Source: Candidatus Cloacimonadaceae bacterium
GTDB taxonomy: Bacteria; Cloacimonadota; Cloacimonadia; Cloacimonadales; Cloacimonadaceae
Reading direction: 5' to 3'
DNA length: 55,681 nucleotides
Assembly: GCA_030693415.1 (NCBI GenBank)
Contig: JAUYAR010000037.1
Span: 1-55,681, forward strand
Shown: positions 18,680-49,744 of the stretch, piece by piece
How positions within the stretch are numbered: the first letter of the stretch is position 1
Layout of the letters: each line of letters begins with the position of its first letter
Position numbers and translations under genes: made by a program
Notes under the pieces: generated by a model
The model's input: the letters and a program-made list of their open reading frames with translations, nothing else
Told to the model about the DNA's origin: nothing
Database searches by the model: none

Positions 18680-18730
18680 ACACAATAGTTTTGCAAAGTG
18701 CAAAATCACATGAAACGCTACCTCATGGAA

Positions 18731-18901
18731 CGCCGACGTCCCCGTCGGCGACAGCAGCAATGAACCTGACACATCCACCAATTTCGTAAACCGATCCACA
18801 AATCTGTTGCTGATCCACAATCTGTAACTGATCCTGCGGACCCGAACCGACGGGGACGTCGGTAGTTCCATAATCATGGAGCGCCGACGTCCCCGTCGGC
18901 G
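18731..18901. repeat. REP-like hairpins, family A, three copies
   Basis: Three short palindromes: CGCCGACG-TCCC-CGTCGGCG at 18731-18750 and 18882-18901, and the opposite orientation ACCGACG-GGGA-CGTCGGT at 18846-18863. Each forms a 7- to 8-base-pair stem with a 4-base loop. Opposite-facing pairs resemble the BIME arrangement of REP elements. Three more copies lie at 31933-32114. Confidence 0.85.
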
Positions 18902-19005
18902 ACAGCAGCGATGAACCTGCCAGATATGCTCAAATTGAGTACTTTTTCATCATGCTCCAACATCTAAAAGATATAAATCCGCGTAGAGCTGGATTTTGCC
19001 TATAT

Positions 19006-19115
19006 AAAAAAAAAGAGCCGCGGACGCGGCTCTTGCGGGTAGTGACCGGACAGGTTATCCTGCTTCCTCGATCGTTCCCATCCTTCTCAGTGGGCAGGCA
19101 CTCAGGATGGTTCAC
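19006..19115 (-). ncRNA. Small RNA gene, copy 1 (about 110 nt, unknown family)
   Basis: A transcript starting at GTGAACC is predicted from a promoter 6 bases upstream and a strong terminator at its end. Stem 1 is CCATCC/GGATGG and encloses stem 2, AGTG/CACT; both are conserved with copy 2, while the loops differ. The middle can form CAGG-ATAA-CCTG. The terminator (arms 19015-19021 and 19026-19032, loop 4) is followed by nine T residues. There is no gene in the same direction for about 640 bases, so it is not an obvious riboswitch. It does not match RNAs I know (6S, SRP, tmRNA, RNase P, common riboswitches). Confidence 0.7.
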
Positions 19116-19122
19116 GTTTCAC

Positions 19123-19150
19123 ATTAAAATCAGCTTCCCTTTTTTGGCAA
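19123..19150 (-). promoter_or_regulatory. Promoter of small RNA copy 1
   Basis: Minus-strand TTGCCA (19145-19150), 16-base spacer, TTTAAT (19123-19128), then 6 bases to the conserved CGTGAACC. Copy 2 has the same 16-base spacer and the same 6-base distance with different spacer sequence. Confidence 0.7.
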
Positions 19151-19300
19151 GTTCTTTTTCATCTCTTCTATCACCCTATCGGCTAATATGGCAATATAAT
19201 GAGATACATCTTTGTGAGACGCGATACCTTTACAGTGGAAGGTTTTATTATTGCCGGATATCCTTGCGTTGGAATGGTAGAGTACGATAGTGCAGGCATG

Positions 19301-19325
19301 AAAAAGGAGCTGCCGAAGCAGCTCC
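19301..19325 (-). terminator. Rho-independent terminator after the subtilisin gene
   Basis: Perfect 8-base-pair stem GGAGCTGC/GCAGCTCC with tetraloop CGAA (plus-strand view; TTCG in the RNA), followed by five T on the minus strand, 9 bases after the stop codon. Confidence 0.92.
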
Positions 19326-19333
19326 TTTTGATA

Positions 19334-22300
19334 TTATTTGGACAAAAGCATCTTTCGGATGGAGGCATAATCCCCGCTACGGAATCTGTAATAGTAGATG
19401 CCGCTGGCAAGAGCTCTGCCGCCAGAGTCTCTACCGTCAAAGTTTATCAGGTAGTGCCCAGGGCTTTCGTGAATTCTTTCATAGGAGCGCAGCTTCTGAC
19501 CACGGACGTTGAAGATATCAAGGCTGACATATCCAGCTTTGTGGATGCTGTATCCGATCGTTGTATTGGGATTGAAGGGATTGGGATAGGCTTGCCTTAC
19601 TTCGGTGACCAAAGGGATATTTGGGATGCCGTTATCAGTGGAGGCAGTAGTTATATGGATCGGTCCATGATACTGTGTCCAGCCGTCCATGTCCATGCTT
19701 TGCAGCCAATAGTAATAGATTGTTCCCGCTTCGGTTTCGCTGTCCGTGAAGCTATAGCTTTGCTGCTGGGAGGTGTTGGTAGCGAGGATCAGCGGAGAAA
19801 CCATGATCGCTGAATCGAGTTGATCGCTATCGTGCCTGTGCAGATAATAGCCCAAGGCGCCGCTTTCCGTCTGAGTGACCCAATCCAGCCGCACGTAGTT
19901 CTGGTTGCTGAGTACCGCGTTAAAGGAAGATAGCGTCACTGGGAGTGTGCTGTCCTGGTTGTTTGGAAACGCGAGGATCAGGTATTCACCCGCTTTCGCG
20001 GTAGGGATGGTGATGGCGAGCGAACTGTTTGTCCACGAACCGGTGTTGGTGATCAGGTTCCAGCCCCCGCCTTCTCCGAGGAGGTAGGCAATCCTGTTCG
20101 GCACAAAACCCAGGTTGTGGATCACGTTGATCGTGCTGCCGGCAAAGCTCCCTCCATAGAAACTGAGGCAAAGCCCTGCCTCCGGCAGATTTACTTCCGG
20201 TGGCGCGTAGGATGTTTTGACGATGATGAAATCAATATCACCGCTCAGATTTGTTACCGTGATCTGTGGAGATAAAGGATTGGACTGAGGATCATTGACA
20301 GGTGGTGGGGAGACAGAGACTGATTGATTGATTACCACTGCCGCGTCGCTCTGAGAGCCAATGATGACCCTGATGTTATCCACGGCAATTGGAGGTTGAG
20401 TCCCTGCGCTATTGTCGTTGAACCAGGTAAAAACGAGACGTTTTGTTTGTCCCGAAGGTGCTGTCCCCAGGTCGATGGTGTCTTCCTGCCAGGTGTTGTT
20501 CAAATTGTAGAGAGTGCCGATCTGCCCCGATCCAAGCTGAGTTCCGGCTACGGGAGCAATCGAAGGATCGACGAGATAGACCTTCATTCCGTCAAGAGTG
20601 GTTTGTCCGTTGCCTTTCCAGGCAAAGCGAAGCTTGAAACCTTCGGTCGAGGAGGGAAAAACGATGCGCTGATATAAATGGGATACCGATGCATTGGTCA
20701 AAGAGTATGCATTGGAGGTTCCAGCGTTGTTGCTGATATATGCGGACTTGATGCCGGTGTGAGAAATTGCATTTCCGGTCTCCCATATATTGGTCTGTGT
20801 GCCGTTCACGGTTTTCCACCCGTTCCATCCAGCTTCAAAGCCTTCTGCGAAGGGTGCTGTCAGATCCCCTTGATAAAGTGGAAACGTGATATGATCGATC
20901 CAGGCACGATCGCTATTTGAAGAAACGGTGCCATCCTTGGAATATGTCCAGCTAAAAGTCCTGGCCCCTGCTGAAACCGCATAGCTTTGCATCGCCCATA
21001 GCCCGGCGCCGGACCATTGCCCTTGCTGGATTCCGTCGATAAAGAACCGGAGATAATCATAGCTTGCTTCGGAGGAAACTCTTTGATAGAAAGTAATGTT
21101 GCCCGCCTGAGCTACATCAAGCTGGATGGATAAGGATGAGCTCTGATTGTGGGTGATCGCTCCCGAGCCGGCTGCATAGTTTCCATAGTATTTTTCCACG
21201 GTTTGGGTTGTCCATGGTAGATTGCCGGAATGTGTCCAGTCCAATGTATTGAAATTGTTTGTTTCAAATCCCTCGTCGGCGGGATATAGCAAATTGACGA
21301 TGATCTGAGCAGCAGTTATGTTATTGTCATTATCGATCGCCTTTGCCACGATCGTATGATTTCCCAAGCTTGCTCCGCCGCTGTTCCAAAACCATGAATA
21401 GGGGGCGGAGTAATCGATAAAAACCGGTGTCGGCGAAGCATCGAGATAGAACTCGACCCTTACGACACTCCCCGGAGCGGGATCCTGTGCATTGACCAAG
21501 ACATTGATCTGATCACCGATGATGAGCTTTTCGCCGGTGAGCGGTTGGGTGATTACACACGTCGGAGGGTTTAACTCGATCAATGTCAGCGCCGCGTTTG
21601 CGTTGATCATGCCATATCCTGTGAAGCGATCCCATCCTGCACCGCCATCGATGGTCATATCCGTGGCGGAACTTGTGAGCACTGAACGAATCTGGGCAGG
21701 AGTGAGTGACGGAGACTGAGATTTGAGCAATGCGGCGACTCCGGCAACGTATGGCGTGGCGCAGGATGTGCCATTGAACCACATATAATAATCCGTGGTG
21801 GAATATCCCGTCGCACCTGAAATATCGGTGGTGGGGAGAATCGTGGGAGCGGTGATATCCACCGATGCCCGATGATCCTGAGGTTCGGACGTTTTACAGT
21901 AGATCGATCCCCACCATGTTTCACCGTCGGATGAAGTATAGCTCTTTCTCTGTGCAGTGGGACTGGCAGCCGCGACACTGATCACGTTGGGGTGATTGGC
22001 GGGATAGTTCACAAAATCCTGAGTCGTGTTTGAGGAGCTATAGTTTCCGGTTGCGGCAAAAATACACACACCCTGATTGTAGGCATAGGCGATGGCATTG
22101 TCCGTAGCGGAATCGTATCCGTAGGAAACATAGGCGCCCAGACTGAGGCTGACGATGTGGGCACCGTTGTTTGCCGCGTAGGTGATCGCGTTGGCTATCG
22201 CGGTAAAAGTCATTGTCCCTGCTGAGTTTGCCACCTTCAAGGGCATGACGCTGCTGCCACCGGCAATTCCAGTAACGCCGAGACTGTTGTTTGCCCTTGC

Positions 22301-23029
22301 CGCTGCCACTCCGGCACACGCGGTTCCATGTCCCTTTTGGGAACTGTCGTCCATCGGATTATTGTCGTTATCCCCAAAATCGTATCCAGTCACCAGGCGC
22401 AAATCGAGATGCGCGGTATCCACACCGGTATCTATAATAGCGATGATGACCGCGGCGCTGCCATATCCCTGTGATTTGTCCCAGGCAAGCTGTGCGCGGC
22501 TGTCAAACCCGATCGTTCCCACTCCGGGACCGGAATGGCTGCCGCTTTGATACACGGGAAGCTGCGCGGTGTTGTTGTGTCCCCAGTTATTTGGGTAAAA
22601 CGTATCGTTTGGAACCGCAGTGCTATAGGCAAGGTATTCCAAAATGGCGTCCTCGACATAGCGGTTGGCTTTGAAGGACGCAATTGCAGCTGCGACATCT
22701 GCTTTTCCATCCAACAGGATGACGAACCAGCGGTCAAAACCGGTGTTCGATTCCCAAGTTTGGTCATCTACTCTGCGATGGGCACGAATGATCCTTCTGC
22801 CGCTATAGCGGGCGAAAAGCTGATCCAGTTCGTTGATTCCAAAGCTGCCGGCTTCAGCGTAGAGCCCTTGCGGAAGCGAAGTTCTTAGGATGGCATCGGA
22901 GCTGAGTTTGATCTTGATTCTGTCTTGGGCAAAAAGCGGTTTCTCTATATTTTCACCCGGTAGCGCGTCTGCGCAGAGTAAACCAAAGGTGAAGAATATA
23001 GTCACAAGTAATAATAGTGTCGTTTTCAT
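19334..23029 (-). CDS. Secreted subtilisin-like (S8) protease with C-terminal sorting domain
   Basis: 1231 residues. A signal peptide (about 1-21) precedes a propeptide-like region to about 140. The S8 catalytic domain shows Asp200 (IAIIDTGVDTAHLD), His234 (GHGTACAGV) and Ser422 (NGTSCATPYVAG). An Ig-like domain (about 475-575) and two beta-sandwich modules follow, each beginning with an aromatic GFE motif. The last 90 residues (AYPNPFNPNTTIGYSIHKAG, ending RKMLLSK) are the FlgD-like / Por-type tail that directs proteins to a type IX-like exporter in FCB bacteria. Probably exported to the cell surface or medium for protein digestion. Single gene with its own terminator. Confidence 0.95.
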   Translation of the reverse strand: MKTTLLLLVTIFFTFGLLCADALPGENIEKPLFAQDRIKIKLSSDAILRTSLPQGLYAEAGSFGINELDQLFARYSGRRIIRAHRRVDDQTWESNTGFDRWFVILLDGKADVAAAIASFKANRYVEDAILEYLAYSTAVPNDTFYPNNWGHNNTAQLPVYQSGSHSGPGVGTIGFDSRAQLAWDKSQGYGSAAVIIAIIDTGVDTAHLDLRLVTGYDFGDNDNNPMDDSSQKGHGTACAGVAAARANNSLGVTGIAGGSSVMPLKVANSAGTMTFTAIANAITYAANNGAHIVSLSLGAYVSYGYDSATDNAIAYAYNQGVCIFAATGNYSSSNTTQDFVNYPANHPNVISVAAASPTAQRKSYTSSDGETWWGSIYCKTSEPQDHRASVDITAPTILPTTDISGATGYSTTDYYMWFNGTSCATPYVAGVAALLKSQSPSLTPAQIRSVLTSSATDMTIDGGAGWDRFTGYGMINANAALTLIELNPPTCVITQPLTGEKLIIGDQINVLVNAQDPAPGSVVRVEFYLDASPTPVFIDYSAPYSWFWNSGGASLGNHTIVAKAIDNDNNITAAQIIVNLLYPADEGFETNNFNTLDWTHSGNLPWTTQTVEKYYGNYAAGSGAITHNQSSSLSIQLDVAQAGNITFYQRVSSEASYDYLRFFIDGIQQGQWSGAGLWAMQSYAVSAGARTFSWTYSKDGTVSSNSDRAWIDHITFPLYQGDLTAPFAEGFEAGWNGWKTVNGTQTNIWETGNAISHTGIKSAYISNNAGTSNAYSLTNASVSHLYQRIVFPSSTEGFKLRFAWKGNGQTTLDGMKVYLVDPSIAPVAGTQLGSGQIGTLYNLNNTWQEDTIDLGTAPSGQTKRLVFTWFNDNSAGTQPPIAVDNIRVIIGSQSDAAVVINQSVSVSPPPVNDPQSNPLSPQITVTNLSGDIDFIIVKTSYAPPEVNLPEAGLCLSFYGGSFAGSTINVIHNLGFVPNRIAYLLGEGGGWNLITNTGSWTNSSLAITIPTAKAGEYLILAFPNNQDSTLPVTLSSFNAVLSNQNYVRLDWVTQTESGALGYYLHRHDSDQLDSAIMVSPLILATNTSQQQSYSFTDSETEAGTIYYYWLQSMDMDGWTQYHGPIHITTASTDNGIPNIPLVTEVRQAYPNPFNPNTTIGYSIHKAGYVSLDIFNVRGQKLRSYERIHESPGHYLINFDGRDSGGRALASGIYYYRFRSGDYASIRKMLLSK

Positions 23030-23141
23030 GGCAGATCCTTCATGGGTATCAATTATTCTTTAAATGGGAGGAAATTAGGGAGGGGGATATTTGTCAACCA
23101 CAAAGTTCAAACAATGTTGTTTTTGTGGGTAAAAGATGTAG

Positions 23142-23161
23142 CGCAGCATGCCGATGCTGCG
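23142..23161. repeat. REP-like hairpin, family B, copy 1
   Basis: CGCAGCAT-GCCG-ATGCTGCG, 8-base-pair perfect stem with a 4-base loop, preceded by GTAG. The inverted copy with the same GTAG context lies at 32787-32806; a relative lies at 43196-43215. It sits between the divergent subtilisin and TetR genes. Confidence 0.8.
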
Positions 23162-23163
23162 AA

Positions 23164-23217
23164 GGTGGAAAGGTGGAACGCCGAATCTCATCTCTCTCCT
23201 CTTCCACCTTTCCATCC
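23164..23217. repeat. Dispersed inverted-repeat element, family C, copy 1
   Basis: Arms GGAAAGGTGGAA (23167-23178) and TTCCACCTTTCC (23202-23213), exact over 12 bases, enclose a GAGAGATGAGATTC-type centre on the minus strand. A diverged copy, with GAGATGGGTT in the centre and one decayed arm, is at 55319-55376. Confidence 0.65.
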
Positions 23218-23301
23218 TCACATTCAAGATAAATCCTTGACAATAATCATGGATGAGAGAGTTGTGTTTCAGAGAGCAAAATGATTTCGAGAGGAAGTGG
23301 A

Positions 23302-23913
23302 ATGAACATGTATCCCAAACCCCGCAAAAAATCCGTCCTGCCGGTAGATTACAGGAATAAGATACTGGTTGCGGCGATTAAGGTCTTTGCCCAGAAGGGC
23401 TTTGTAGCCAGCACGATGTCCGATGTCTCGATTCACGCCAAGGTCGGCATCGGAACGCCTTACAACTATTTCCGCAACAAGGACGACCTCCTTCTTCAAT
23501 GTATGAAAAAAACCATAGAGGACGAGATTCATCAGATCAAAGACCTTAGCAGCAATGTTCCGGACCCCGTGGATAAGCTGCAAACCTTTTTCCAAAAACA
23601 CACCGAACTGATGATGAGCAAGCCCTATATCGCCAGGTTTCTTGTGGTGGAGCTGCGCCAAAGCGAAGGTTTTTACAAACGCAACCCAAGCTACAATCCG
23701 ATGAACTATTACCTGGACTATGTGCGCGGAATCTGCAAAGAAGCAATGGAAACCGGACGTATCCGCACCGTCGATCCCGACGCCTTGTCCTATATGATCA
23801 TCGGTGCGATGGATATGATCCTCACCCAGTGGTTGATCAGCGGCAAGACCATGGACATGATGCCTTTGACCGGTAAGATCCGTAATATCATCGAAAACGG
23901 GCTCTTGCAATAG
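23302..23913 (+). CDS. TetR/AcrR family transcriptional regulator
   Basis: 203 residues from ATG 23302, which has the AGAGGAAG site at a good distance; an upstream in-frame ATG at 23281 has none. The N-terminal helix-turn-helix (ILVAAIKVFAQKGFVASTMSDVSIHAKVGIGTPYNYFRNKDDLL) is typical of TetR regulators. The C-terminal domain resembles those of fatty-acid regulators of the FadR/YsiA type in layout, but the ligand cannot be read from sequence. One base separates it from the next gene, so it probably controls its own operon with the downstream outer-membrane-type protein. Confidence 0.92.
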   Translation: MNMYPKPRKKSVLPVDYRNKILVAAIKVFAQKGFVASTMSDVSIHAKVGIGTPYNYFRNKDDLLLQCMKKTIEDEIHQIKDLSSNVPDPVDKLQTFFQKHTELMMSKPYIARFLVVELRQSEGFYKRNPSYNPMNYYLDYVRGICKEAMETGRIRTVDPDALSYMIIGAMDMILTQWLISGKTMDMMPLTGKIRNIIENGLLQ

Positions 23914-23914
23914 G

Positions 23915-24964
23915 ATGCATAATCCTCGCTCGCTTGAGTCTTTCACGATTTCGACATTAGGGCTGAGCACCTCTGTTCTCCTACTGATGTGCATAGCCGC
24001 GAGTGTGTTAGGGGCGGTGGACATCCCTGTCTTCGTCTCTTTTGATTCTGATAACCGGGTGGATTGGTTCTATGAACGCGAGGAAAAGCAAGTAAGCTGG
24101 GACGAAAAGTATCTGCTCCGTTTCGGCATCGACGATCTGAAGCACAAACAGCTCGGTTTTGATCTCGGCATGATAACCAGCGCCAATTTCATCGAACAGC
24201 AGGTTCTCCTCGATCACATCCGTTTGTCCTACATGGAGGGCAAACACAAACTGGAAGCGGCAAGCGAGGTTATCGGTTTCGGCGAGGATTACATCCTGCA
24301 GGATCTGCTCTTGACCGACCCCCGCTTTGACGGATTTCTCTTTCGGGAAATGCGGTGGAATGGACTGTGCTATTCATTTTCCCGCAATTATCTGGAAACG
24401 GGAATCGGCATCGGGGGTAACATCCACAACCAGGCAAGCGCCAAAGCGCAGCTAATCTTGAGCTTGCATAGATTGCAACTACGCCTTGCCGCGCGCACTG
24501 AAACATTTGATTCCCATCACTACGAACCAGCTTTCACGTTATCCTTGGGAGCCGATATCGATATTAAGCGGATTCGATACAAGACGGATACGGTATATAG
24601 CGGCATCTGGTTCTTCAAATCCGGCGAACCAAAGGAATTGTATCACATCAGCCAGATTGATCTGCCATTGAAGGAAAACAACTGCCTCTACAGCGGAATC
24701 GTTTATGAAGACATAGACATCTATTCAAGCCAAAACGTGGAGCTGTTTTTGGGGGGAAAGGCATACTTTGGCAGACTCGGCATCATTCCCTGGTTTGATC
24801 TCAGACAACTCACGGACGACCAAATCCTCAGCGCCAATCTCAGATGCGACTGGCAATTTTATCCCTCCGGCAGGATCGGTATCTATCTGAAACATCTGGA
24901 CGTATCCAATGGAACAAAGCATGCGACGATCGGTCTGCAAAGCTCGCTGCGCTTTGATTTTTAG
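23915..24964 (+). CDS. Probable outer membrane beta-barrel protein, unknown function
   Basis: 349 residues. A hydrophobic segment at about 14-34 ending in A-S-V-L-G-A looks like a signal peptide. The rest consists of alternating amphipathic strands (for example YLETGIGIGG, AQLILSLHRLQLRLAARTE, RIGIYLKHLD) and ends in an aromatic residue (SSLRFDF), a hallmark of BAM-inserted barrels. I recognise no named family. It follows the TetR gene by one base and overlaps the deacetylase gene, so the three probably share a transcript. Confidence 0.6.
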   Translation: MHNPRSLESFTISTLGLSTSVLLLMCIAASVLGAVDIPVFVSFDSDNRVDWFYEREEKQVSWDEKYLLRFGIDDLKHKQLGFDLGMITSANFIEQQVLLDHIRLSYMEGKHKLEAASEVIGFGEDYILQDLLLTDPRFDGFLFREMRWNGLCYSFSRNYLETGIGIGGNIHNQASAKAQLILSLHRLQLRLAARTETFDSHHYEPAFTLSLGADIDIKRIRYKTDTVYSGIWFFKSGEPKELYHISQIDLPLKENNCLYSGIVYEDIDIYSSQNVELFLGGKAYFGRLGIIPWFDLRQLTDDQILSANLRCDWQFYPSGRIGIYLKHLDVSNGTKHATIGLQSSLRFDF

Positions 24965-25664
24965 CCTGCTGCTGTGCTTGGCAGGTTGCAGATTCATTTC
25001 CGAGGAAAGAGCAAAAAGTCCGATTATCGTCTTCACTTTTGATGACGCGCATGTCAGCATTATTCGGCATGGGTTTCCGATCCTGAGCGAATATGGCTTC
25101 CGCGGCACGAACTTTGTGAATTCCGGCAGGATCGGCAATCCCAACCGCATGACCTGGGATGATTTGCGGACTCTCGAACACATCTATGGATGGGAAACAG
25201 GCGGGCACACCATGAACCACGAAGATCTGCCGGAAATCAGCTTTGCCGAAGCGGAGACCACCATCAGGGACGACTATCGCAACCTCGTTCAAAATGAATT
25301 GAATCCGCGTTCCTTCGCACTTCCCAAGGGAGCATGCCCACAGGAATACTATCAGATCATTCTGCGCTACTACAAAAATATCCGCAATAGCAGCGACTTT
25401 GCCATGCAGGCTCCGGTGAACCGTCTGGCATTGGGATATCTGCCTTTCCTGGGCGAGTGGACGGCGGCGCAAATCAAAGATCGGATTATGCGCGGTATCG
25501 CCAACCGCGAAAGCATCATCATCATCGGATTTCATCACATCGAAACTCCGGATGCGCCCACCTATGATAATTGTCCCACGAGCGAATTGCGGGAAATCAT
25601 GCGTTTTGTGAGTGAAAGAGGCTTGCGCGTGCTGCCTCTGGCGGAAGCGATCGAAGAATTGTGA
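24909..25664 (+). CDS. Polysaccharide deacetylase (NodB-type) lipoprotein
   Basis: 251 residues. The signal sequence ends in the lipobox LAGC (cysteine about residue 27), so it should be a membrane-anchored lipoprotein. The NodB homology domain shows TFDDAHVS near residue 44, the metal-binding H-T-M-N-H pattern (GGHTMNHEDLP) and a late IGFHHIE motif. Likely removes acyl groups from surface or cell-wall sugars. The start overlaps the preceding gene by 56 bases; ATG 24921 is an alternative. Confidence 0.85.
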   Translation: MEQSMRRSVCKARCALIFSLLLCLAGCRFISEERAKSPIIVFTFDDAHVSIIRHGFPILSEYGFRGTNFVNSGRIGNPNRMTWDDLRTLEHIYGWETGGHTMNHEDLPEISFAEAETTIRDDYRNLVQNELNPRSFALPKGACPQEYYQIILRYYKNIRNSSDFAMQAPVNRLALGYLPFLGEWTAAQIKDRIMRGIANRESIIIIGFHHIETPDAPTYDNCPTSELREIMRFVSERGLRVLPLAEAIEEL

Positions 25665-25734
25665 AGATTTTACTTGTCAAATGACCTTCATCTAAAAAAG
25701 CTGGAATAATCAGAATAATACTATAGAGGATACA

Positions 25735-26934
25735 ATGAAGCTATCGCAGCGCGCAATCGAGATACAGGCATCACCGATCCGCAAGCTGATGCCCTATGCC
25801 AACAACGCAAAGAAAAGAGGGATAACGGTTTATCATCTCAATATCGGCCAGCCGGACATCCCTACTCCCCCGGAAATGATCCGCGTCTATCACGAGTTTT
25901 CCGAAAAAGTGCTCGCCTACGGTCCTTCACAGGGCTTGGACGTCTATCGCAAAGGCTTGGTGGAATATTACGGGAAAAACAGCATCCCGCTTGAGGAAAA
26001 CGACATCCTAGTCACCACCGCGGGCAGCGAAGCGGTCACTTTTGCCATGCTTGTCGTCTGTGGCGTGGGCGATGAGATCATTGTTCCCGAACCTTTCTAT
26101 ACGAACTACAACGGCTTTGCATCGATGACGGGCATCACCATCAAACCGCTCACCACCTATGCCGAGACCGGTTTCCAACTTCCAGATAACGACGCCATCG
26201 AAGCTGTTATCGGCACAAAGACCAAAGCAATCATGATCTGCAACCCCGGCAATCCCACCGGCACGGTCTATTCCAAAGAGGATATCTTCCGTCTGGCTAG
26301 TCTGGCGAAAAAGCACGGACTCTATCTGATCTCGGACGAGGTCTATCGCGAATTTGTCTATGACGGAATGACCCATACCAGCATCTTGCAAATACCCGGC
26401 ATCGAGGAACATGCGATCATGGTGGACAGCGTTTCCAAACGCTACAGCGCCTGTGGAGCGCGCATCGGTTGCATCGTTTCGCGCAACAAAGCTTTGATGG
26501 ACGCAACGCTCAAATTTGCCCAGGCAAGGCTGTGTCCGCCAACGGTGGATCAGCTTGCCGCCAATGCCTGCGTGGCGCTTGGTGATGAATTCTTTGTTCC
26601 TCTGATCGGCGAATATCAAAGACGCAGAGACTTGGTTTACAATGAACTCATCAAGATTCCCGGCATCGTCTGCGTGAAACCGGAAGGCGCATTTTACATC
26701 GTCGCCAAGCTGCCGATCGAGGATGCCGAGGACTTTGTTATCTGGCTTTTGGACAAGTTTCAGATCAACAACGAAACTGTGATGACGGCGCCCGCAGAGG
26801 GTTTCTATGCCACTCCCGGCTTGGGCAGAAACGAGCTGCGCATCGCGTATGTATTGAACGAAAACGACCTGATGGCGGCGATGAATATCTTCCGCCTGGG
26901 CTTTGAAACCTACTGCAAAGAAAAACAATCGTGA
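25735..26934 (+). CDS. Pyridoxal phosphate-dependent aminotransferase (class I/II, AAT-like)
   Basis: 399 residues, a normal length for fold-type I aminotransferases. Seen: NIGQPDIPTPPEM near residue 36, the ICNPGNPTGTVYSKED substrate/PLP region, ISDEVYREFVY with the PLP-binding aspartate, and SVSKRYSACGARIG with the lysine that binds PLP. Closest in pattern to aspartate aminotransferase AspC/PatA-like enzymes; the amino-acid substrate is not certain. Ribosome binding site AGAGGA just before the ATG. It stands ahead of the sugar permeases with a 33-base gap. Confidence 0.92.
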   Translation: MKLSQRAIEIQASPIRKLMPYANNAKKRGITVYHLNIGQPDIPTPPEMIRVYHEFSEKVLAYGPSQGLDVYRKGLVEYYGKNSIPLEENDILVTTAGSEAVTFAMLVVCGVGDEIIVPEPFYTNYNGFASMTGITIKPLTTYAETGFQLPDNDAIEAVIGTKTKAIMICNPGNPTGTVYSKEDIFRLASLAKKHGLYLISDEVYREFVYDGMTHTSILQIPGIEEHAIMVDSVSKRYSACGARIGCIVSRNKALMDATLKFAQARLCPPTVDQLAANACVALGDEFFVPLIGEYQRRRDLVYNELIKIPGIVCVKPEGAFYIVAKLPIEDAEDFVIWLLDKFQINNETVMTAPAEGFYATPGLGRNELRIAYVLNENDLMAAMNIFRLGFETYCKEKQS

Positions 26935-26967
26935 ATAAATCCTAAACTCATGCACGAGAGGTGAGCA

Positions 26968-27900
26968 ATGAAAACCAGATGGAAGATATCTCCCTATCTT
27001 TATATTCTACCGGCTTTCGGGCTGCTGTTTCTGTTTCGACTGATTCCGATTCTCATGTCTTTTTTGATCAGTTTCTACGATTGGGGAATCACCGGCACCG
27101 GCAAGTTCATCGCCTTTGACAACTATGGCACGATGTTCAAGGACCCGGTGTTTTGGAAATCGCTCATGAACACGTTTTGGGTAGTGATTTTCATGGTTCC
27201 CGCCAGCATCGTCTTTTCCCTGATTTTTGCCGTGCTGCTCAATCAGATCAAACGCCTCAAAGGGCTTTTTCGAACGATCTACTTCCTGCCCTTCGTGACC
27301 TCGCTCGTAGCGGTCTCCATCGTGTGGAAGATCATCTATTCGGAGCAGTCCGGACTGGCAAACAGCTTTCTGGGTCTCGTCGGAATCGCTCCACAGAAAT
27401 GGCTCTCCGAGGCGCGCGGCATCTTCGATATCTTCTTTTCCGGCATAGGCATATCGCTGCCGGCTTGGATGCACGGTCCGTCCCAGGCACTTTTTGCGAT
27501 CATCATCATGACAATTTGGAAAGGTTTGGGCTACAACACGATCATCTATCTTGCCGGACTTCAAAACATCCCCAAGGACTATTATGAAGCTGCGGAGATC
27601 GATGGCGCCGGCAAGCTCAAACAGTTCTTCCGCATCACTTTGCCATTGGTCTCCCCCACCACCTTTTATGTGCTGCTGATGACCACGATTGTCTCATTTC
27701 AGACTTTTGCCCAGATCTATCTGATGACGGACAAGGGTGGACCATTGAATTCGACCAAGCTGATCGTCTATTACATCTATGAAAAGGGGTTTGACACTCT
27801 GGATATGGGCTATGCCAGCGCGGTGGCGCTATTCCTCTTCGTCCTGGTATTGGGGCTTACGCTATTCCAGAGACGCCTTGAGAAAAAGGTCAACTACTAG
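26968..27900 (+). CDS. Carbohydrate ABC transporter permease, MalF/UgpA-like
   Basis: 310 residues with about six membrane segments. The cytoplasmic EAA motif that docks the ATPase is clear: DYYEAAEIDGAGKLKQFFRI followed by TLPLVSP. Typical of CUT1-family sugar importers. RBS GAGGTGAG before the ATG. It is followed by its partner permease after 12 bases. No solute-binding protein or ATPase gene is in this window. Confidence 0.93.
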   Translation: MKTRWKISPYLYILPAFGLLFLFRLIPILMSFLISFYDWGITGTGKFIAFDNYGTMFKDPVFWKSLMNTFWVVIFMVPASIVFSLIFAVLLNQIKRLKGLFRTIYFLPFVTSLVAVSIVWKIIYSEQSGLANSFLGLVGIAPQKWLSEARGIFDIFFSGIGISLPAWMHGPSQALFAIIIMTIWKGLGYNTIIYLAGLQNIPKDYYEAAEIDGAGKLKQFFRITLPLVSPTTFYVLLMTTIVSFQTFAQIYLMTDKGGPLNSTKLIVYYIYEKGFDTLDMGYASAVALFLFVLVLGLTLFQRRLEKKVNY

Positions 27901-27912
27901 GAGGAGGGCACC

Positions 27913-28899
27913 ATGAACAAAATGATAAGAATGACGATCATCTACACCTTCCTCACGATCTTTGGGCTCTTTATGATCGTGCCCTTCATCTGGATGATCT
28001 CTACTTCGCTGATGACGCAATCCGAATTTAACAAACACGATTCCATCTTCATTCCCAAGGAAGAATATCACGTCTGGCACAATCAGAATAAGGATCAGCG
28101 CATCATCTTCGTGACCACAAAGGGAGACAGCGCGATTGTGCACATCCTGAACAAAGATCATCAGATCGAGCGGGAATATGTATCCGTGCTTGCCAAAGAT
28201 GTGGAACTGATCAAAAAGGTGCCTTCCCTCAATTGGGGAAACTTTATCAAGGCATTTAAGAAAGTGCCTTTCGCCACCTATTTTGCCAATACCTTGTTTG
28301 TCTCCTTTCTATCGCTGATCGGCGTGCTCATCACATCGCTTTTGGCGGCATACGCTTTGGCGAGGATGGAGTTTCGAGGCAGGGAATTTATCTTCGTGCT
28401 TTTCCTGAGCATGTTGATGGTGCCGGAACCGATCTATCTGATATCTTCCTACGTGCTGCTGGATAAAATCAATTGGCTGGATACCTATAAAGCGTTGATC
28501 GTTCCCTGGTGCGTGAATATCTTCACCATTTTCCTCTTCCGCCAGCACTTCAAATCCCTGCCCAAGGAGCTTTTCGATGCCGCCGCCATCGATGGTTGCA
28601 GCACCTTCGGCATGCTTCGCCGGATTATTTTGCCGCTTTCCAAACCCATAATCGCCACCGCGTCGATCTTTTCGTTGATTGGATCCTGGAATAGCTTCAT
28701 GTGGCCATTAGTGATGACCAACCGTCCCGAACTGCGCGTTTTGCAGGTGGGCTTGAGCTATTTCAATCAGGAAGCTTCCACCCAGACGACTCTTTTGATG
28801 GCGGCTTCCACTTTCAGCATCCTGCCCATCCTCATCCTCTTTATCATCGCGCAAAAACAGATCATCGCCAGCAGTGCCAAAGCGGGCATGAAAGATTAG
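27913..28899 (+). CDS. Carbohydrate ABC transporter permease, MalG/UgpE-like, with a long periplasmic loop
   Basis: 328 residues; MalG-type permeases are usually about 270-300. The extra length sits between membrane segments 1 and 2 (about residues 35-105: HDSIFIPKEEYHVWHNQNKD, and a stretch with IVHILNKDHQIEREYVSVLA). The EAA motif ELFDAAAIDGCSTFGMLRRI plus LPLSKP is intact. It pairs with the upstream permease. An AGGAGG site precedes the ATG. Confidence 0.93.
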   Translation: MNKMIRMTIIYTFLTIFGLFMIVPFIWMISTSLMTQSEFNKHDSIFIPKEEYHVWHNQNKDQRIIFVTTKGDSAIVHILNKDHQIEREYVSVLAKDVELIKKVPSLNWGNFIKAFKKVPFATYFANTLFVSFLSLIGVLITSLLAAYALARMEFRGREFIFVLFLSMLMVPEPIYLISSYVLLDKINWLDTYKALIVPWCVNIFTIFLFRQHFKSLPKELFDAAAIDGCSTFGMLRRIILPLSKPIIATASIFSLIGSWNSFMWPLVMTNRPELRVLQVGLSYFNQEASTQTTLLMAASTFSILPILILFIIAQKQIIASSAKAGMKD

Positions 28900-28915
28900 A
28901 GCTTTTGGAGTATAA

Positions 28916-31687
28916 ATGAATAAACAAAAACTGGATCTGAAAAAGATCAAGGAACTCGCCCAAATGGGCAAGATACCAGCTACCACGGGAAAAGAATACC
29001 AGAAACCCCGGCCCCGCGTCCCGATTGACGATGCGGATCTCAGACCCTGCGAATTGGTGAAACCCAAGATAAACTGGATCGCCGCGGGCATTGTCTTCTC
29101 CCTCACGTTGATCGTCTATATGCTCACTCAGGCACGCACATTGTCCTTTTGGGATTCTGGAGAATATGCCACCTGCATCAGCATCCTCGGTGTGCCCCAT
29201 CCCCCCGGAAATCCTTTCTACATCCTCTTTGGCAGAGCCGTCGTAGCATTGTTTGGAAGGGGTTTTTCCCATGCCGTGATCGCGGCATTTATTTCCGGAA
29301 TCACTTCCGCGTTAGCGGTGATGTTTACCTATCTGATGACGGTGCAGCTCGTCAGCATGTTTCGCATCAAAGCCTGGGAAGCGATGTATGCCGGGATCGT
29401 GGCGGCGTTTTTCACCGCTTTTTCCTTCACTTTCTGGATGAACGCGATCGAGGCGGAGGTCTATGCCGGGCTTGTTTTCTTCGTCAATCTGATTATCTGG
29501 CTCATTCTTTACTGGGTGCAAAAATCACGTGATATGAACCGGCAAAACATCCTGCTCCTAATCCTCTACCTCTTTTTCCTGGGTTTCTGCGTGCACCAAA
29601 CAGCTTTGCAGATCGCTCCGGCGGTGCTTTTTATCGTCATCTATCCTCTCTTGCGCGGCGGCACCACCAAAAGTAGTTTCTGGCCCAAAGTCATTGGCTA
29701 CACGATCGCCCTCCTCTTTGGTTATATCATCTTCGGACGGATCGGAAAAGGGTTTGGCATTGATGACTTTGACAAATGGGGCTTTGCCTTGGTTGCCTTT
29801 TTACTGCTCTATATCGAGCTCAGGGACGTCATCGACCGCCGCGTTTGGTGGATCGGCATCGGGCTTGTGCTTGTCGGTTTGTCCTCACATCTGTATCTGA
29901 TGGTGCGCGCCAGCGATAGACCCTTCATCAACGAAGGACACCCCAGCACCATGTCGATGTTCAAAGACTACGTGTTGCGCAAGCAATACGGAGAGACCTC
30001 GTTTTTTGTCCGCCGCGGACATTTCATCAAAGACCAGCTCGGCTACCATTTTCTCCGCTATTTCAATATGCAGTGGTTCAACGCGGAAATGCTCTCCAAG
30101 TGGCTGAGCGTTCCGGCAAACCTGATCAACTCGATCGGAACCGCTATCGTCGCTCTGCTGGGTCTATTTGGAGCTATCTTTCATCAGCGCCGCAACCGCC
30201 ATAGCTTCTACTATTTCTTGTCGATCATGATCGTCACCACCATCGTGATGGTCTTCGTGATGAATCTATCGGATGGCGAAGTGCGCGACCGGGACTATTT
30301 CTTTGTCGTAGCCTATAACATGTGGGCTGTCTGGCTGGGCATCGGCGCCCTCGGCATACTCTATCTCTTCAAGACCGAGATGCCGAAATACATCCTCGCG
30401 GGCTTGATTCTGATCCTGCCTCTCATCAATTTCGTATCCCAATATCACGTGCATGACCGATCCAAAGAGTTCATCGCGCTCGACTATGGCGTCAATTTCC
30501 TGAACTCAATGGAGGAAAACGCCATCATCTTTACCAATGGAGACAACGACACCTTCCCCATCTGGTATGCCCAGGCGGTACATGATCCTTATGCCAAAGA
30601 GCATGTCTATCCGGCAAAAGATGTCTATCCATATCCCGCGGCACTGGAATCGATCAAGAGCGCCATGGACTTCAAGACCAAAAACCTCCGCGGCATCCGC
30701 AAGGACGTTTCCGTGGCGAATCTGTCGTTGCTGAACACTCCCTGGTACATCAAACAACTGCGGGACAAGGAAGGCATCCTTTTCAACTGGACGGATGAGC
30801 AGATTGACGAGCTCAGACCACGCGAGATCACTCAACCGTTGACGATTTCCGCAGGAGCCGCGGCACCCGATATGCGTTTCAGGGTCGATTATGAAAAAAG
30901 CCCCCCCTGGCGACAAAACGAACCAGTCTATCGGATCTCGGACCTCGCCGTCATGCAGATCATCAAAGCTAACTTCGGCAAGCGCCCCATCTATTTTGCC
31001 GTCACCTGCGAAAGCTACATCGGTTTTGACGATTATCTGCGCAACGAAGGCATGGTCAGCCGCCTCACTCACGTCAAAACGGACGAAGACGTCGCCGTCG
31101 AAATCAACCGTCTGCTGAACAATATCGACAAGGTCTATGAATATCGCTCCATCCTCGATGACAAGGTATATAAAGACGACAACATGCGCCGCCTGGTCAT
31201 GAACTATGGATCCGGCTACGTTCGCGCTTCCACCTGGTTCATTAAAAAACGGGAATTTGAGAAAGCGAAACATTATATCGACAAAGCCCGCAAATTTGTC
31301 ACCGACGAGATCCGCCTGATCGATTTCCACGTTCGCTACAATGCCGGCACCGGAAATTGGACGGCGCTGGACAAGTTCATCGAGGACAACGTTTTCAGAC
31401 ACAGCGACGGCTGGCGCATCTACCTCTCCTACGTGATGAGCTATCTGATGGACACCTATCCGGAAAAAGCTATGTCCTATTTCCGCAAAGGAATGCTCCA
31501 ATATCCCGACCAGGATTACATGGCGGCCTTCACCTCCCATTTTGCCAAAAACACCGGCAAACAAGCAGAGGCGATCGCAATGTTTGATTCCATCCAACCC
31601 CTGATCAGATATGACCTGAGCAAACACAAAGCGTTCCTGATGCAGCGTCAATTACCCAGCACAAATGATTCGGATATGTTTGAATGA
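28916..31687 (+). CDS. DUF2723 membrane protein, probable glycosyltransferase-like
   Basis: 923 residues. After a hydrophilic N-terminus, a DUF2723 domain begins near residue 50 with SFWDSGEYATCISILGVPHP and PGNPFYILFGR; the acidic D-S-G-E motif sits in the first outer loop as in GT-C (PMT-like) transferases. About ten membrane segments are followed by a soluble C-terminal half (from about residue 530) that ends in a TPR-like helical region. DUF2723 proteins are common in the FCB group and have been linked to protein O-glycosylation; the reaction here is not shown. 16 bases after the MalG-type gene. Confidence 0.85.
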   Translation: MNKQKLDLKKIKELAQMGKIPATTGKEYQKPRPRVPIDDADLRPCELVKPKINWIAAGIVFSLTLIVYMLTQARTLSFWDSGEYATCISILGVPHPPGNPFYILFGRAVVALFGRGFSHAVIAAFISGITSALAVMFTYLMTVQLVSMFRIKAWEAMYAGIVAAFFTAFSFTFWMNAIEAEVYAGLVFFVNLIIWLILYWVQKSRDMNRQNILLLILYLFFLGFCVHQTALQIAPAVLFIVIYPLLRGGTTKSSFWPKVIGYTIALLFGYIIFGRIGKGFGIDDFDKWGFALVAFLLLYIELRDVIDRRVWWIGIGLVLVGLSSHLYLMVRASDRPFINEGHPSTMSMFKDYVLRKQYGETSFFVRRGHFIKDQLGYHFLRYFNMQWFNAEMLSKWLSVPANLINSIGTAIVALLGLFGAIFHQRRNRHSFYYFLSIMIVTTIVMVFVMNLSDGEVRDRDYFFVVAYNMWAVWLGIGALGILYLFKTEMPKYILAGLILILPLINFVSQYHVHDRSKEFIALDYGVNFLNSMEENAIIFTNGDNDTFPIWYAQAVHDPYAKEHVYPAKDVYPYPAALESIKSAMDFKTKNLRGIRKDVSVANLSLLNTPWYIKQLRDKEGILFNWTDEQIDELRPREITQPLTISAGAAAPDMRFRVDYEKSPPWRQNEPVYRISDLAVMQIIKANFGKRPIYFAVTCESYIGFDDYLRNEGMVSRLTHVKTDEDVAVEINRLLNNIDKVYEYRSILDDKVYKDDNMRRLVMNYGSGYVRASTWFIKKREFEKAKHYIDKARKFVTDEIRLIDFHVRYNAGTGNWTALDKFIEDNVFRHSDGWRIYLSYVMSYLMDTYPEKAMSYFRKGMLQYPDQDYMAAFTSHFAKNTGKQAEAIAMFDSIQPLIRYDLSKHKAFLMQRQLPSTNDSDMFE

Positions 31688-31747
31688 TCCGGTGATGGGA
31701 AGCATCTTCGGCAAGCAAGCCATGTGCAATCCGCCTCTTGCATATAA

Positions 31748-31774
31748 CAAGAGCCTTCCACAAGAAGGTTCTTG
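31748..31774 (+). terminator. Possible terminator after the DUF2723 gene
   Basis: Eleven-base-pair stem CAAGAGCCTTC/GAAGGTTCTTG (one G-U pair) with a 5-base loop, about 60 bases after the stop. There is no T run, so it may be an RNA-stabilising hairpin rather than a true terminator. Confidence 0.45.
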
Positions 31775-31932
31775 CCTGAGTTTAACCGGCTTTACGCCAC
31801 CGGGGCACGTCCACATCCTTCATTCACGGGCGCTCGCTAAAGATGCTTCACATCGCAAATTATATTCAGTTTCCAGCCTTCTGCCAAACTCTTTTTCTCT
31901 TACCCTATGTATATACCGTCCTGCGGAAAAGA

Positions 31933-32114
31933 ACCGACGGGGACGTCGGTGATTCCATAATCACATGAAACGCTACATCATGAAACGCTACATCATGGAA
32001 CGCCGACGTCCCCGTCGGCGACAGTCGCGAGGAACCTGTCACATCCACCAATTTTGTAAACCATCTACAAATCGGTAACCGATCCTGCGGAAAAGAACCG
32101 ACGGGGACGTCGGT
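31933..32114. repeat. REP-like hairpins, family A, three further copies
   Basis: ACCGACG-GGGA-CGTCGGT at 31933-31950 and 32097-32114, and the opposite orientation CGCCGACG-TCCC-CGTCGGCG at 32001-32020. Same family as 18731-18901. A doubled CGCTACATCATG stretch lies between the first two. Confidence 0.85.
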
Positions 32115-32254
32115 AATTCCATAACATAAACCGCTACGACAAAAACATTGTGCTGATTGCCGAACTTGCCAAAGATAACCAAATTGAATACTTTAACATC
32201 ATGCTCCAACATCTAAAAGAAATAAATCAGCTTAGAGCTGGATTTTGCCTATAT

Positions 32255-32362
32255 AAAATAAGAAAGAGCCGCTTTAGCGGCTCTTTCCGGATGATCAACG
32301 ACCTTCCTTCTGTCTGACCAGTTCCCATCCATCGCAGTGTGAAGGCACTCAGGATGGTTCAC
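32255..32362 (-). ncRNA. Small RNA gene, copy 2 (about 108 nt, unknown family)
   Basis: Same design as the copy at 19006-19115. It starts at GTGAACC, keeps stem CCATCC/GGATGG and inner stem AGTG/CACT, followed by a conserved GGAAC; the inner loop reads CCTTCA here and CCTGCC in copy 1. The middle part is different in sequence. The terminator has a perfect 10-base-pair stem (32263-32272 and 32277-32286) with a different loop, followed by a T-rich stretch. It points toward the convergent end of the DUF2723 gene, so it leads no protein gene. Confidence 0.7.
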
Positions 32363-32369
32363 GCTATAC

Positions 32370-32397
32370 AATATAATCTGCATGTCCACTTTGTCAA
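32370..32397 (-). promoter_or_regulatory. Promoter of small RNA copy 2
   Basis: Minus-strand TTGACA (32392-32397), 16-base spacer, TATATT (32370-32375), then 6 bases to CGTGAACC. Near-consensus sigma-70 type; geometry identical to copy 1. Confidence 0.8.
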
Positions 32398-49379: not shown

Positions 49380-49744
49380 TTTATATCCTTGTTGCATATT
49401 AATATTTGTATCTGAGGCAACCGCATGCTGTTCGGTTGCCGATATTATTTGTTTGATGCACATTTCATACCGATTGTGGATAAAACAATGCCAGGCGAAC
49501 AGTGGCACATGAATAGCCTTGCTTAATGCTGCTTCATTCCTGATCTGACATGGTTCACACGCATCCATTGCACTGTGCCTGGCGCGGTCAAAGTTATCCG
49601 GCAGTGGTATTTGTCAATCGAAATCGTGGGGATATAGTCTCAAGGTATCGAGCCAAGGCATTGAAACAATTGGGTTAAATAACCTAAATAAACATAAATC
49701 CTTGTGTGGCAATAGGATACTTGTTAGTGCCTCTATCCTCTCTC

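What the first reader, a model, noticed from the sequence alone, without database searches (positions are those of the whole stretch)
19006..32397. Two copies of an unrecognised small RNA gene with matched promoter geometry
At 19006-19150 and 32255-32397 (both minus strand) a near-consensus promoter (16-base spacer in both) is followed at exactly 6 bases by CGTGAACCATCCTGAGTGCC, a nested stem (CCATCC/GGATGG enclosing AGTG/CACT), a divergent middle, and a strong GC-rich terminator whose stem and loop differ between copies. Conserved ends, variable centre and independent terminators point to a selected, stand-alone RNA of about 110 nt. Neither copy leads a protein gene, which argues against a riboswitch.
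Basis: partly seen in the sequence, partly recalled or inferred. Interest (0 to 1): 0.82.

Follow-up and report, generated by a model that had tools for sequence, protein, structure and literature searches.

The report
Phage-derived folded RNA in Cloacimonadota
The window carries three copies of a small, previously uncatalogued folded RNA that also sits in Mu-like viruses of the same bacteria, right beside the gene for a toxin-like protein those viruses probably inject, so it may protect cells from that protein.

Summary
Both sites carry a sigma-70-type promoter, a conserved ~73-nt core and a GC-rich terminator. A third, diverged copy lies at 31782-31852(-), and a fourth elsewhere in the genome. 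Twelve copies form a family; 11 were aligned and covary strongly (25 pairs, 14 changed on both sides; 0 of 500 shuffles reach the score). No Rfam family matches.

The RNA has two hairpins. The first carries a k-turn signature; its loop is complementary to the loop of the second, with some compensating changes. In five Mu-like (pro)phages it ends 25-57 nt beyond, and convergent with, the stop of a MuF gene ending in a PBECR2 (nuclease-fold) domain. The window copies are orphans beside decayed ends of such a gene.

Most likely mechanism (inferred, about 0.35): an RNA that neutralises the injected MuF-PBECR2 protein; orphan copies would protect against incoming phage. Against it: no conserved catalytic residues in this PBECR2 clade, weak promoters in most phage copies, association confined to one phage clade, no binding or expression data. 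Main rivals: a phage regulatory RNA, a virion-bound RNA.

The parts
19145..19150 (-). copy 1 promoter -35 (TTGCCA), 16-nt spacer
19123..19128 (-). copy 1 promoter -10 (TTTAAT), 6 nt before the RNA core
19044..19116 (-). copy 1 RNA core (hairpin 1 with k-turn signature, hairpin 2, complementary loops)
   Evidence: R1-R3 matches; pair counts; k-turn
19006..19033 (-). copy 1 terminator hairpin (19014-19033) and T-run
18913..19011 (+). decayed 3' end of a MuF-PBECR2 gene, convergent with copy 1 (weak alone, E 0.015-0.74 in small databases; 87% DNA identity to the stronger remnant at copy 2)
32392..32397 (-). copy 2 promoter -35 (TTGACA), 16-nt spacer
32370..32375 (-). copy 2 promoter -10 (TATATT), 6 nt before the RNA core
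32292..32363 (-). copy 2 RNA core
32254..32287 (-). copy 2 terminator hairpin (32262-32287) and T-rich tail
32126..32257 (+). decayed 3' end of a MuF-PBECR2 gene, convergent with copy 2 (44.7% identity over 47 aa; 44% over 63 aa to another phage)
31882..31887 (-). copy 3 promoter -35 (TTGGCA), 17-nt spacer
31859..31864 (-). copy 3 promoter -10 (TATAAT), 6 nt before the RNA core
31782..31852 (-). copy 3: diverged RNA core; k-turn positions partly kept (U at 2n, 4-nt bulge); loop AGCGCC can pair with GGCGT of hairpin 2, register shifted by one; outer part of hairpin 2 decayed (pairing read by eye)
   Evidence: R2 24.0 bits, E 0.0034 in 92 kb, 0.10 genome-wide; R3 24.4 bits, E 0.06; sequence
31748..31774 (-). 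copy 3 terminator hairpin

Best explanation
SHOWN: a structured RNA element (73-nt core followed by a terminator) carried by Mu-like (pro)phages of Cloacimonadota, convergent with and abutting a MuF-PBECR2 gene, and present as orphan copies with good sigma-70-type promoters in bacterial chromosomes, three in this window. SHOWN at sequence level: hairpin 1 has a k-turn signature and its loop is complementary to the loop of hairpin 2, with compensating changes in two sequences. INFERRED: the k-turn folds hairpin 1 back so that the loops kiss and a compact RNA forms. INFERRED, most likely mechanism: this RNA binds and neutralises the PBECR2 domain (nuclease fold resembling colicin D) of the MuF protein that the phage presumably packages and injects. 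It would act as an RNA immunity factor in lysogens, and orphan copies would protect cells against incoming related phages.
For: RNA reality and fold: 11 aligned copies, 93.4% of cells paired, 14 of 25 pairs changed on both sides, covariation score 0.503 against 0.181 for shuffles, 0/500. Kissing pairs co-vary at columns 19-60 and 22-57 (three cells, from L005 and L007). K-turn: 3-nt bulge, G1b, A2b, A1n in 11 of 11, G2n in 9 of 11; U at 2n, as in L018, occurs in natural Kt-23 (PMC5061560, passages). Position: in 5 of 5 RNA-positive phages the core ends 25-57 nt beyond the MuF stop, convergent, and all 5 MuF proteins carry PBECR2 above cut-off. Four RNA-negative relatives examined (L050, L053, L055, L057) have MuF without a PBECR2 match. 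No small same-strand ORF is shared directly after MuF, whereas 89.4% of 191 MuF toxin genes are followed by a small putative immunity ORF (PMC5576092, section 8). The PBECR2 model (pLDDT 87) has four colicin D and two contact-dependent-inhibition entries as its six best VIA rows, Z 5.4-4.0. Orphan retention: MuF is decayed but the RNA intact at copies 1 and 2; at one chromosomal site of G008 and G003, promoter-RNA-terminator match 139 of 151 columns against 67 of 97 in the next stretch, p 4e-6. All seven chromosomal copies in the promoter scan score 9-11 of 12. No Hfq or CsrA match and one L7Ae relative in the genome. A phage-borne RNA that neutralises a toxin by direct binding has precedent: RCd22/AbiF (PMC12373285, abstract).
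Against: No RNA-protein binding, toxicity or expression data. The PBECR2 domains here have no invariant His, Ser or Thr, unlike the H plus S/T site described in PMC5512222, so they may be catalytically dead. In the phage copies the promoter is convincing only in G025 (1/500 shuffles as good), fair in L049 (14/500) and G042 (33/500), weak in L029 (72/500) and absent in L044 (288/500), so phage expression is not shown. The RNA-PBECR2 link is confined to one phage clade and may be shared descent; L052 and L056 (PBECR2 below cut-off), L071 and L136 (similar C-termini) gave no family match (L056 holds only 106 nt beyond MuF). Orphans C17, G008 and G003 show no MuF remnant and G001 only an upstream phage remnant. 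About 50 nt upstream of the promoter are as conserved as the RNA between G008 and G003. VIA Z under 8 and Foldseek E above 0.05 are not proof of a fold match. The A15-U28 pair counted (10 of 11) cannot form together with the k-turn.
Confidence: 0.35

Rival explanations
1. A phage regulatory RNA (in the manner of lambda OOP or P4 CI RNA, recalled) that controls the early-late switch or superinfection, unrelated to the MuF protein; its place facing the head operon would be a regulatory boundary.
For: Convergent with portal-MuF in 5 of 5 phages; in G042 on the same strand as a Mu-type transposase gene; terminator-like hairpin in each copy and good promoters in the chromosomal ones; small HTH-like genes in the RNA-positive phages.
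Against: Most conserved bases lie in helices, k-turn positions or the kissing loop, leaving little for antisense pairing; no Hfq or CsrA match in the genome; the RNA core does not overlap the MuF coding region.
Confidence: 0.25
2. A virion RNA: the PBECR2 domain is a dead nuclease that binds the RNA, so that the RNA is packaged or helps head assembly (remotely like phi29 pRNA, recalled).
For: No invariant His/Ser/Thr; PMC5512222 predicts an RNA-binding role for the inactive PBECR of phage Mu F (passages); adjacency of gene and RNA.
Against: Does not explain intact orphan RNAs in chromosomes beside decayed MuF ends.
Confidence: 0.15
3. The chromosomal copies in this window are inert fossils of a phage RNA.
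For: Neighbouring phage genes are decayed; copy 3 has lost part of hairpin 2.
Against: Promoter, stems, kissing loop and terminator of copies 1 and 2 are intact: 17 of 19 and 19 of 19 stem pairs, 5 of 6 kissing pairs each; conservation at the G008/G003 site.
Confidence: 0.2
4. The element is a short leaderless coding gene starting at GTG at the 5' end.
For: GTG at the second base of the core in 10 of 12 copies, open for 21 to 61 codons in 7 of these.
Against: Stops after 4-5 codons in copy 3, C17 and G001; no start codon there in L044 and L049; changes follow base pairing.
Confidence: 0.02

Closest known systems
MuF polymorphic toxins of temperate phages and their immunity ORFs (PMC5576092, passages and section 8 read)
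   Same: Phage MuF gene with a nuclease-like C-terminal domain; an extra element directly after the gene.
   Different: Here the element after MuF is a convergent structured RNA; no shared small ORF directly follows.
Type III RNA antitoxins and the phage-borne AbiF/RCd22 pair (PMC12373285 abstract; PMC5086642 seen as search listing only)
   Same: Small structured RNA next to a nuclease-type gene on a mobile element.
   Different: Single unit rather than repeats, convergent rather than upstream of the toxin gene, k-turn signature plus kissing loop, no binding shown.
K-turn RNAs such as the SAM-I riboswitch (PMC5061560, passages read)
   Same: A k-turn bends a helix so that its loop can dock elsewhere in the RNA.
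   Different: No downstream gene; docking would be a loop-loop helix; kinked fold not tested here.
lambda OOP / P4 CI phage RNAs (recalled)
   Same: Short phage RNA with a terminator of its own.
   Different: Core has no antisense overlap with the facing coding region; compact, protein-binding-like fold; promoters weak in most phage copies.

Membership tests
Any Rfam 15 family | match at gathering score | tested here: not met
   window and nine relatives: no family at these loci; best relaxed matches are terminator-like
Simple k-turn motif | 3-nt bulge followed by G.A and A.G pairs between two helices | tested here: met
   11 of 11 aligned copies have the bulge, G1b, A2b and A1n; G2n in 9 of 11, U in L018, gap with U before A1n in L049; copy 3, not aligned, has a 4-nt bulge
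Simple k-turn motif | kinked fold in solution or with L7Ae | not testable with these tools
   needs probing or FRET; an L7Ae relative is in the genome
Riboswitch or leader | lies upstream of, and co-directional with, a regulated gene | tested here: not met
   in 5 of 5 phages the RNA faces the MuF stop; in the window copies 1 and 2 end in terminators facing MuF remnants; other chromosomal copies were not examined gene by gene for this
Type III toxin-antitoxin RNA | tandem RNA repeats upstream of and co-directional with the toxin gene (recalled definition) | tested here: not met
   single unit, convergent
Type III toxin-antitoxin RNA | RNA binds and inhibits the toxin | not testable with these tools
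   needs EMSA and co-expression
PBECR2 nuclease domain (MuF C-terminus) | Pfam PF18810 above cut-off | tested here: met
   5 of 5 RNA-positive phages
PBECR2 nuclease domain (MuF C-terminus) | catalytic His plus Ser/Thr (PMC5512222; a sixth PBECR family has Arg for His) | tested here: inconclusive
   no invariant His, Ser or Thr in the C-terminal part of A9 or in A11; invariant Arg columns exist in A9
BECR / colicin D fold | structural similarity | tested here: inconclusive
   best VIA rows: colicin D (four) and contact-dependent inhibition entries (two, chain identity not checked), Z 5.4-4.0, below 8; Foldseek E > 0.05

The most novel reading that the evidence does not exclude
A new kind of immunity: Mu-like phages inject a colicin-D-like MuF nuclease and carry, instead of an immunity protein, a k-turn/kissing-loop RNA that neutralises it; bacteria keep orphan copies of that RNA as protection against related phages.
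Probability: 0.28. Interest if true: 0.87.

Novelty: new variant of a known kind. Interest (0 to 1): 0.66.

Why it matters
It adds a strongly covarying RNA family to a poorly studied phylum, links it to a phage toxin-like gene, and gives a testable case of RNA rather than protein immunity against an injected phage effector, including chromosomal orphan copies. In the open paper library, searches for MuF with small RNA in Mu-like prophages, k-turn with kissing loop, toxin and phage and Cloacimonas with riboswitch returned no paper; Cloacimonadota with noncoding RNA returned one, on sediment metagenomes, not opened. Subscription papers and preprints are not covered.

Tried and rejected
CsrA-sponge idea (several GGA motifs): no CsrA match in the genome. 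Hfq-type antisense RNA: no Hfq match. Rfam relaxed matches (ncS54, rimP leader, isrK) rest on terminator hairpins. Micro-protein reading from GTG rejected. Fourth own-genome pattern hit L004 (3 mismatches) lies in what reads as coding DNA without the fold. Weak R1-R3 matches L008-L012, L025, L030-L032 and L145-L148 (E about 0.12 to 8.4) were not counted; L031 in G004 may be a decayed copy. Known phages and plasmids: no DNA match for copy 2 at E 0.01. A first portal scan gave a single contig that ends before the RNA site. Portal profile scan: 17 loci, of which 4 hold the RNA, 9 run past MuF without a match (L056 for only 106 nt), 4 end before the site (my tally). MuF scan: best 80 of 435 loci kept, 4 with the RNA, all on contigs already known. 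Four other genomes of the phylum with Portal_Mu: no RNA match in the ~3-kb loci nor in the longer stretches, five loci, 44 kb. Foldseek against solved structures gave no E below 0.05. Genome counts are lower bounds, as only part of the first-look candidates is scored in many genomes.
Full report
What is there. Both reported elements are confirmed: promoter, 6-nt gap, identical 20-mer, nested stem, variable centre, terminator. A script that scores -35/-10 pairs found 10/12 and 11/12 matches with 16-nt spacers; 1 and 0 of 500 shuffled upstream sequences reached this. The copies share 39 of 43 bases in the first part and 10 of 29 in the second.

The family. A covariance model from the two copies and a third found in the same genome (G000:C17) was built with a structure read off by me. 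Even with three sequences all six outer pairs of hairpin 2 change on both sides, one cell being unpaired. The model finds six genomes of 124 in the phylum, this one included, all in one family, later three kinds of IMG/VR contig. The three records found by a pattern scan of named genomes are Candidatus Cloacimonadota or Cloacimonetes MAGs; G001 has the size I recall for Cloacimonas acidaminovorans Evry. Model R3 over 40 family genomes adds no further strong match. On 11 copies, 25 pairs: 93.4% of cells paired against 76.9% in shuffles, 14 pairs with two-sided changes against 7.9, covariation 0.503 against 0.181, 0/500 for these three; slid structures give 30-44% paired. The alignment was fitted to the hairpin structure, which favours those hairpins; the kissing pairs were not part of the model.

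Architecture. Hairpin 1: NC-helix CCATCC/GGATGG (or GCATCT/AGATGT and others), a 3-nt bulge with G.A and A.G, and a 3-bp C-helix closed by a 6-nt loop: the simple k-turn pattern. G1b, A2b and A1n are present in 11 of 11, G2n in 9 of 11; L018 has U at 2n, and L049 has U before A1n with an ambiguous gap. Kt-23 naturally carries U most often at 2n (PMC5061560, passages). One pair of the counted structure, A15-U28 (10 of 11), is an alternative to the k-turn, not compatible with it. Hairpin 2 has a loop of about ten bases carrying GCAGG in most copies, complementary to CCTGC of loop 1; in L005 the pair is ACTACC/GGTAGT and in L007 CCTTC/GAAGG. Of the six kissing pairs two show two-sided changes (three cells, from L005 and L007), one varies on one side, two never vary, one is unpaired in 8 of 11.

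Promoters and terminators over 12 copies. A -35/-10 pair as good is found in at most 1 of 500 shuffles for copies 1, 2 and 3, C17, G025, G003 and G001; in 16 for G008, 14 for L049, 33 for G042, 72 for L029 and 288 for L044. Six of the seven chromosomal copies are thus strong, but only one of the five phage copies; in phages the RNA may be transcribed from the operon upstream. A terminator-like hairpin with a T-rich tail was reported for 12 of 12, without a shuffle control.

A third copy in the window. 31782-31852(-) scores 24 bits (E 0.06-0.10 genome-wide, 0.0034 in 92 kb). Alone that would be weak, but it has TTGGCA-17-TATAAT ending 6 nt before the core, a terminator, the P1 helix, k-turn positions with U at 2n and a 4-nt bulge, and a complementary loop pair AGCGCC/GGCGT shifted by one (pairing read by eye). 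I take it as a real, partly decayed copy.

Phage origin. In G042 and G025 the RNA lies in Mu-like prophages and in L029, L044/L046 and L049 in viral contigs: the RNA faces the 3' end of MuF, which follows the portal gene; in G042 a Mu-type transposase gene lies on the RNA's strand. The core ends 25-57 nt beyond the MuF stop in 5 of 5. All five MuF proteins end in PBECR2 above the Pfam cut-off. In the window, the DNA downstream of copy 2 encodes a decayed PBECR2 end (44.7% over 47 aa, E 7e-8 against a small set), and copy 1 has the same stretch at 87% DNA identity with only weak protein similarity (E 0.015 to 0.74). The G001 copy has a phage HTH-like remnant upstream; for C17, G008 and G003 I see in the hits at E 0.05 no MuF or other adjacent phage remnant beyond frames of the RNA itself. 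The sampled genes between the window copies are ordinary chromosomal ones or have no Pfam match, so these are separate insertions or duplications, not one prophage.

Selection. At one site of G008 and G003, with shared sequence downstream (synteny read from ORF lists), promoter, RNA and terminator match 139 of 151 columns, the next 97 columns 67 (p 4e-6); about 50 nt upstream of the promoter are also well conserved, so the RNA is not alone in this. RNA against the neighbouring stretch from +200 on: 68 of 73 against 144 of 173, p 0.04.

Mechanism. Position, retention as orphans, and precedents suggest an RNA counterpart to the MuF-PBECR2 protein. MuF toxin genes are usually followed by a small putative immunity ORF, 89.4% of 191 (PMC5576092, section 8); here no shared same-strand ORF follows directly, although single phages have short ones such as 41 aa in G042. 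An AlphaFold model of the domain (9 sequences, pLDDT 87) has colicin D (four entries) and contact-dependent-inhibition entries (two, chain identity not checked) as its six best VIA rows, Z 5.4 to 4.0, while Foldseek alone is not significant. Against toxicity: no invariant His, Ser or Thr in the domain, whereas PMC5512222 (passages) names H plus S/T as the usual site, a family with Arg instead, and suggests RNA binding for the inactive domain of phage Mu. Either reading predicts that PBECR2 binds RNA; that is the test to do.

Limits. No expression data; association within one phage clade; four RNA-negative relatives without a PBECR2 match (L050, L053, L055, L057) and two with sub-threshold PBECR2 (L052, L056) were scanned, three further ones (L054, L058, L059) were not, so the co-occurrence is small and phylogenetically confounded.

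Noticed in passing
window 18700-18920 and 31900-32130: Palindromic GCCGACGGGGACGTCGGC / ACCGACGTCCCCGTCGGT repeats (REP-like) downstream of both main RNA copies.
   Followed up: no
window 49486-49584(-): Bacterial small SRP RNA (RF00169, 74.8 bits).
   Followed up: no
L071 1483-1683: Convergent to a MuF gene with a PBECR2-like end: TTGCTA-16-TAAGAT, hairpins with complementary 7-nt stretches CTTAATC/GATTAAG and a terminator; possible very distant analogue, fold not certain.
   Followed up: partly
L136 7023-7223: Perfect TTGACA-16-TATAAT promoter facing the end of another MuF gene.
   Followed up: no
L021 2976-3158(+), L029 2485-2670(+) and relatives: Small HTH-like protein (...AERYYLSEVTVRDVVYDKRR; HTH is my reading) 0.3-2.2 kb from the RNA in five RNA-positive phages, with a remnant upstream of the G001 copy; no Pfam family for the two tested.
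   Followed up: partly
L031 1501-1568: Sequence in G004 resembling a decayed copy (CATCTT...AAGATGTGAACTG) without an evident promoter.
   Followed up: partly
L006 and L007 (window copies 1 and 2): Hairpin 2 differs strongly between the window copies (10 of 29 identical) although the MuF remnant beside them is 87% identical over 100 nt, as if that hairpin were swapped or fast-evolving.
   Followed up: no
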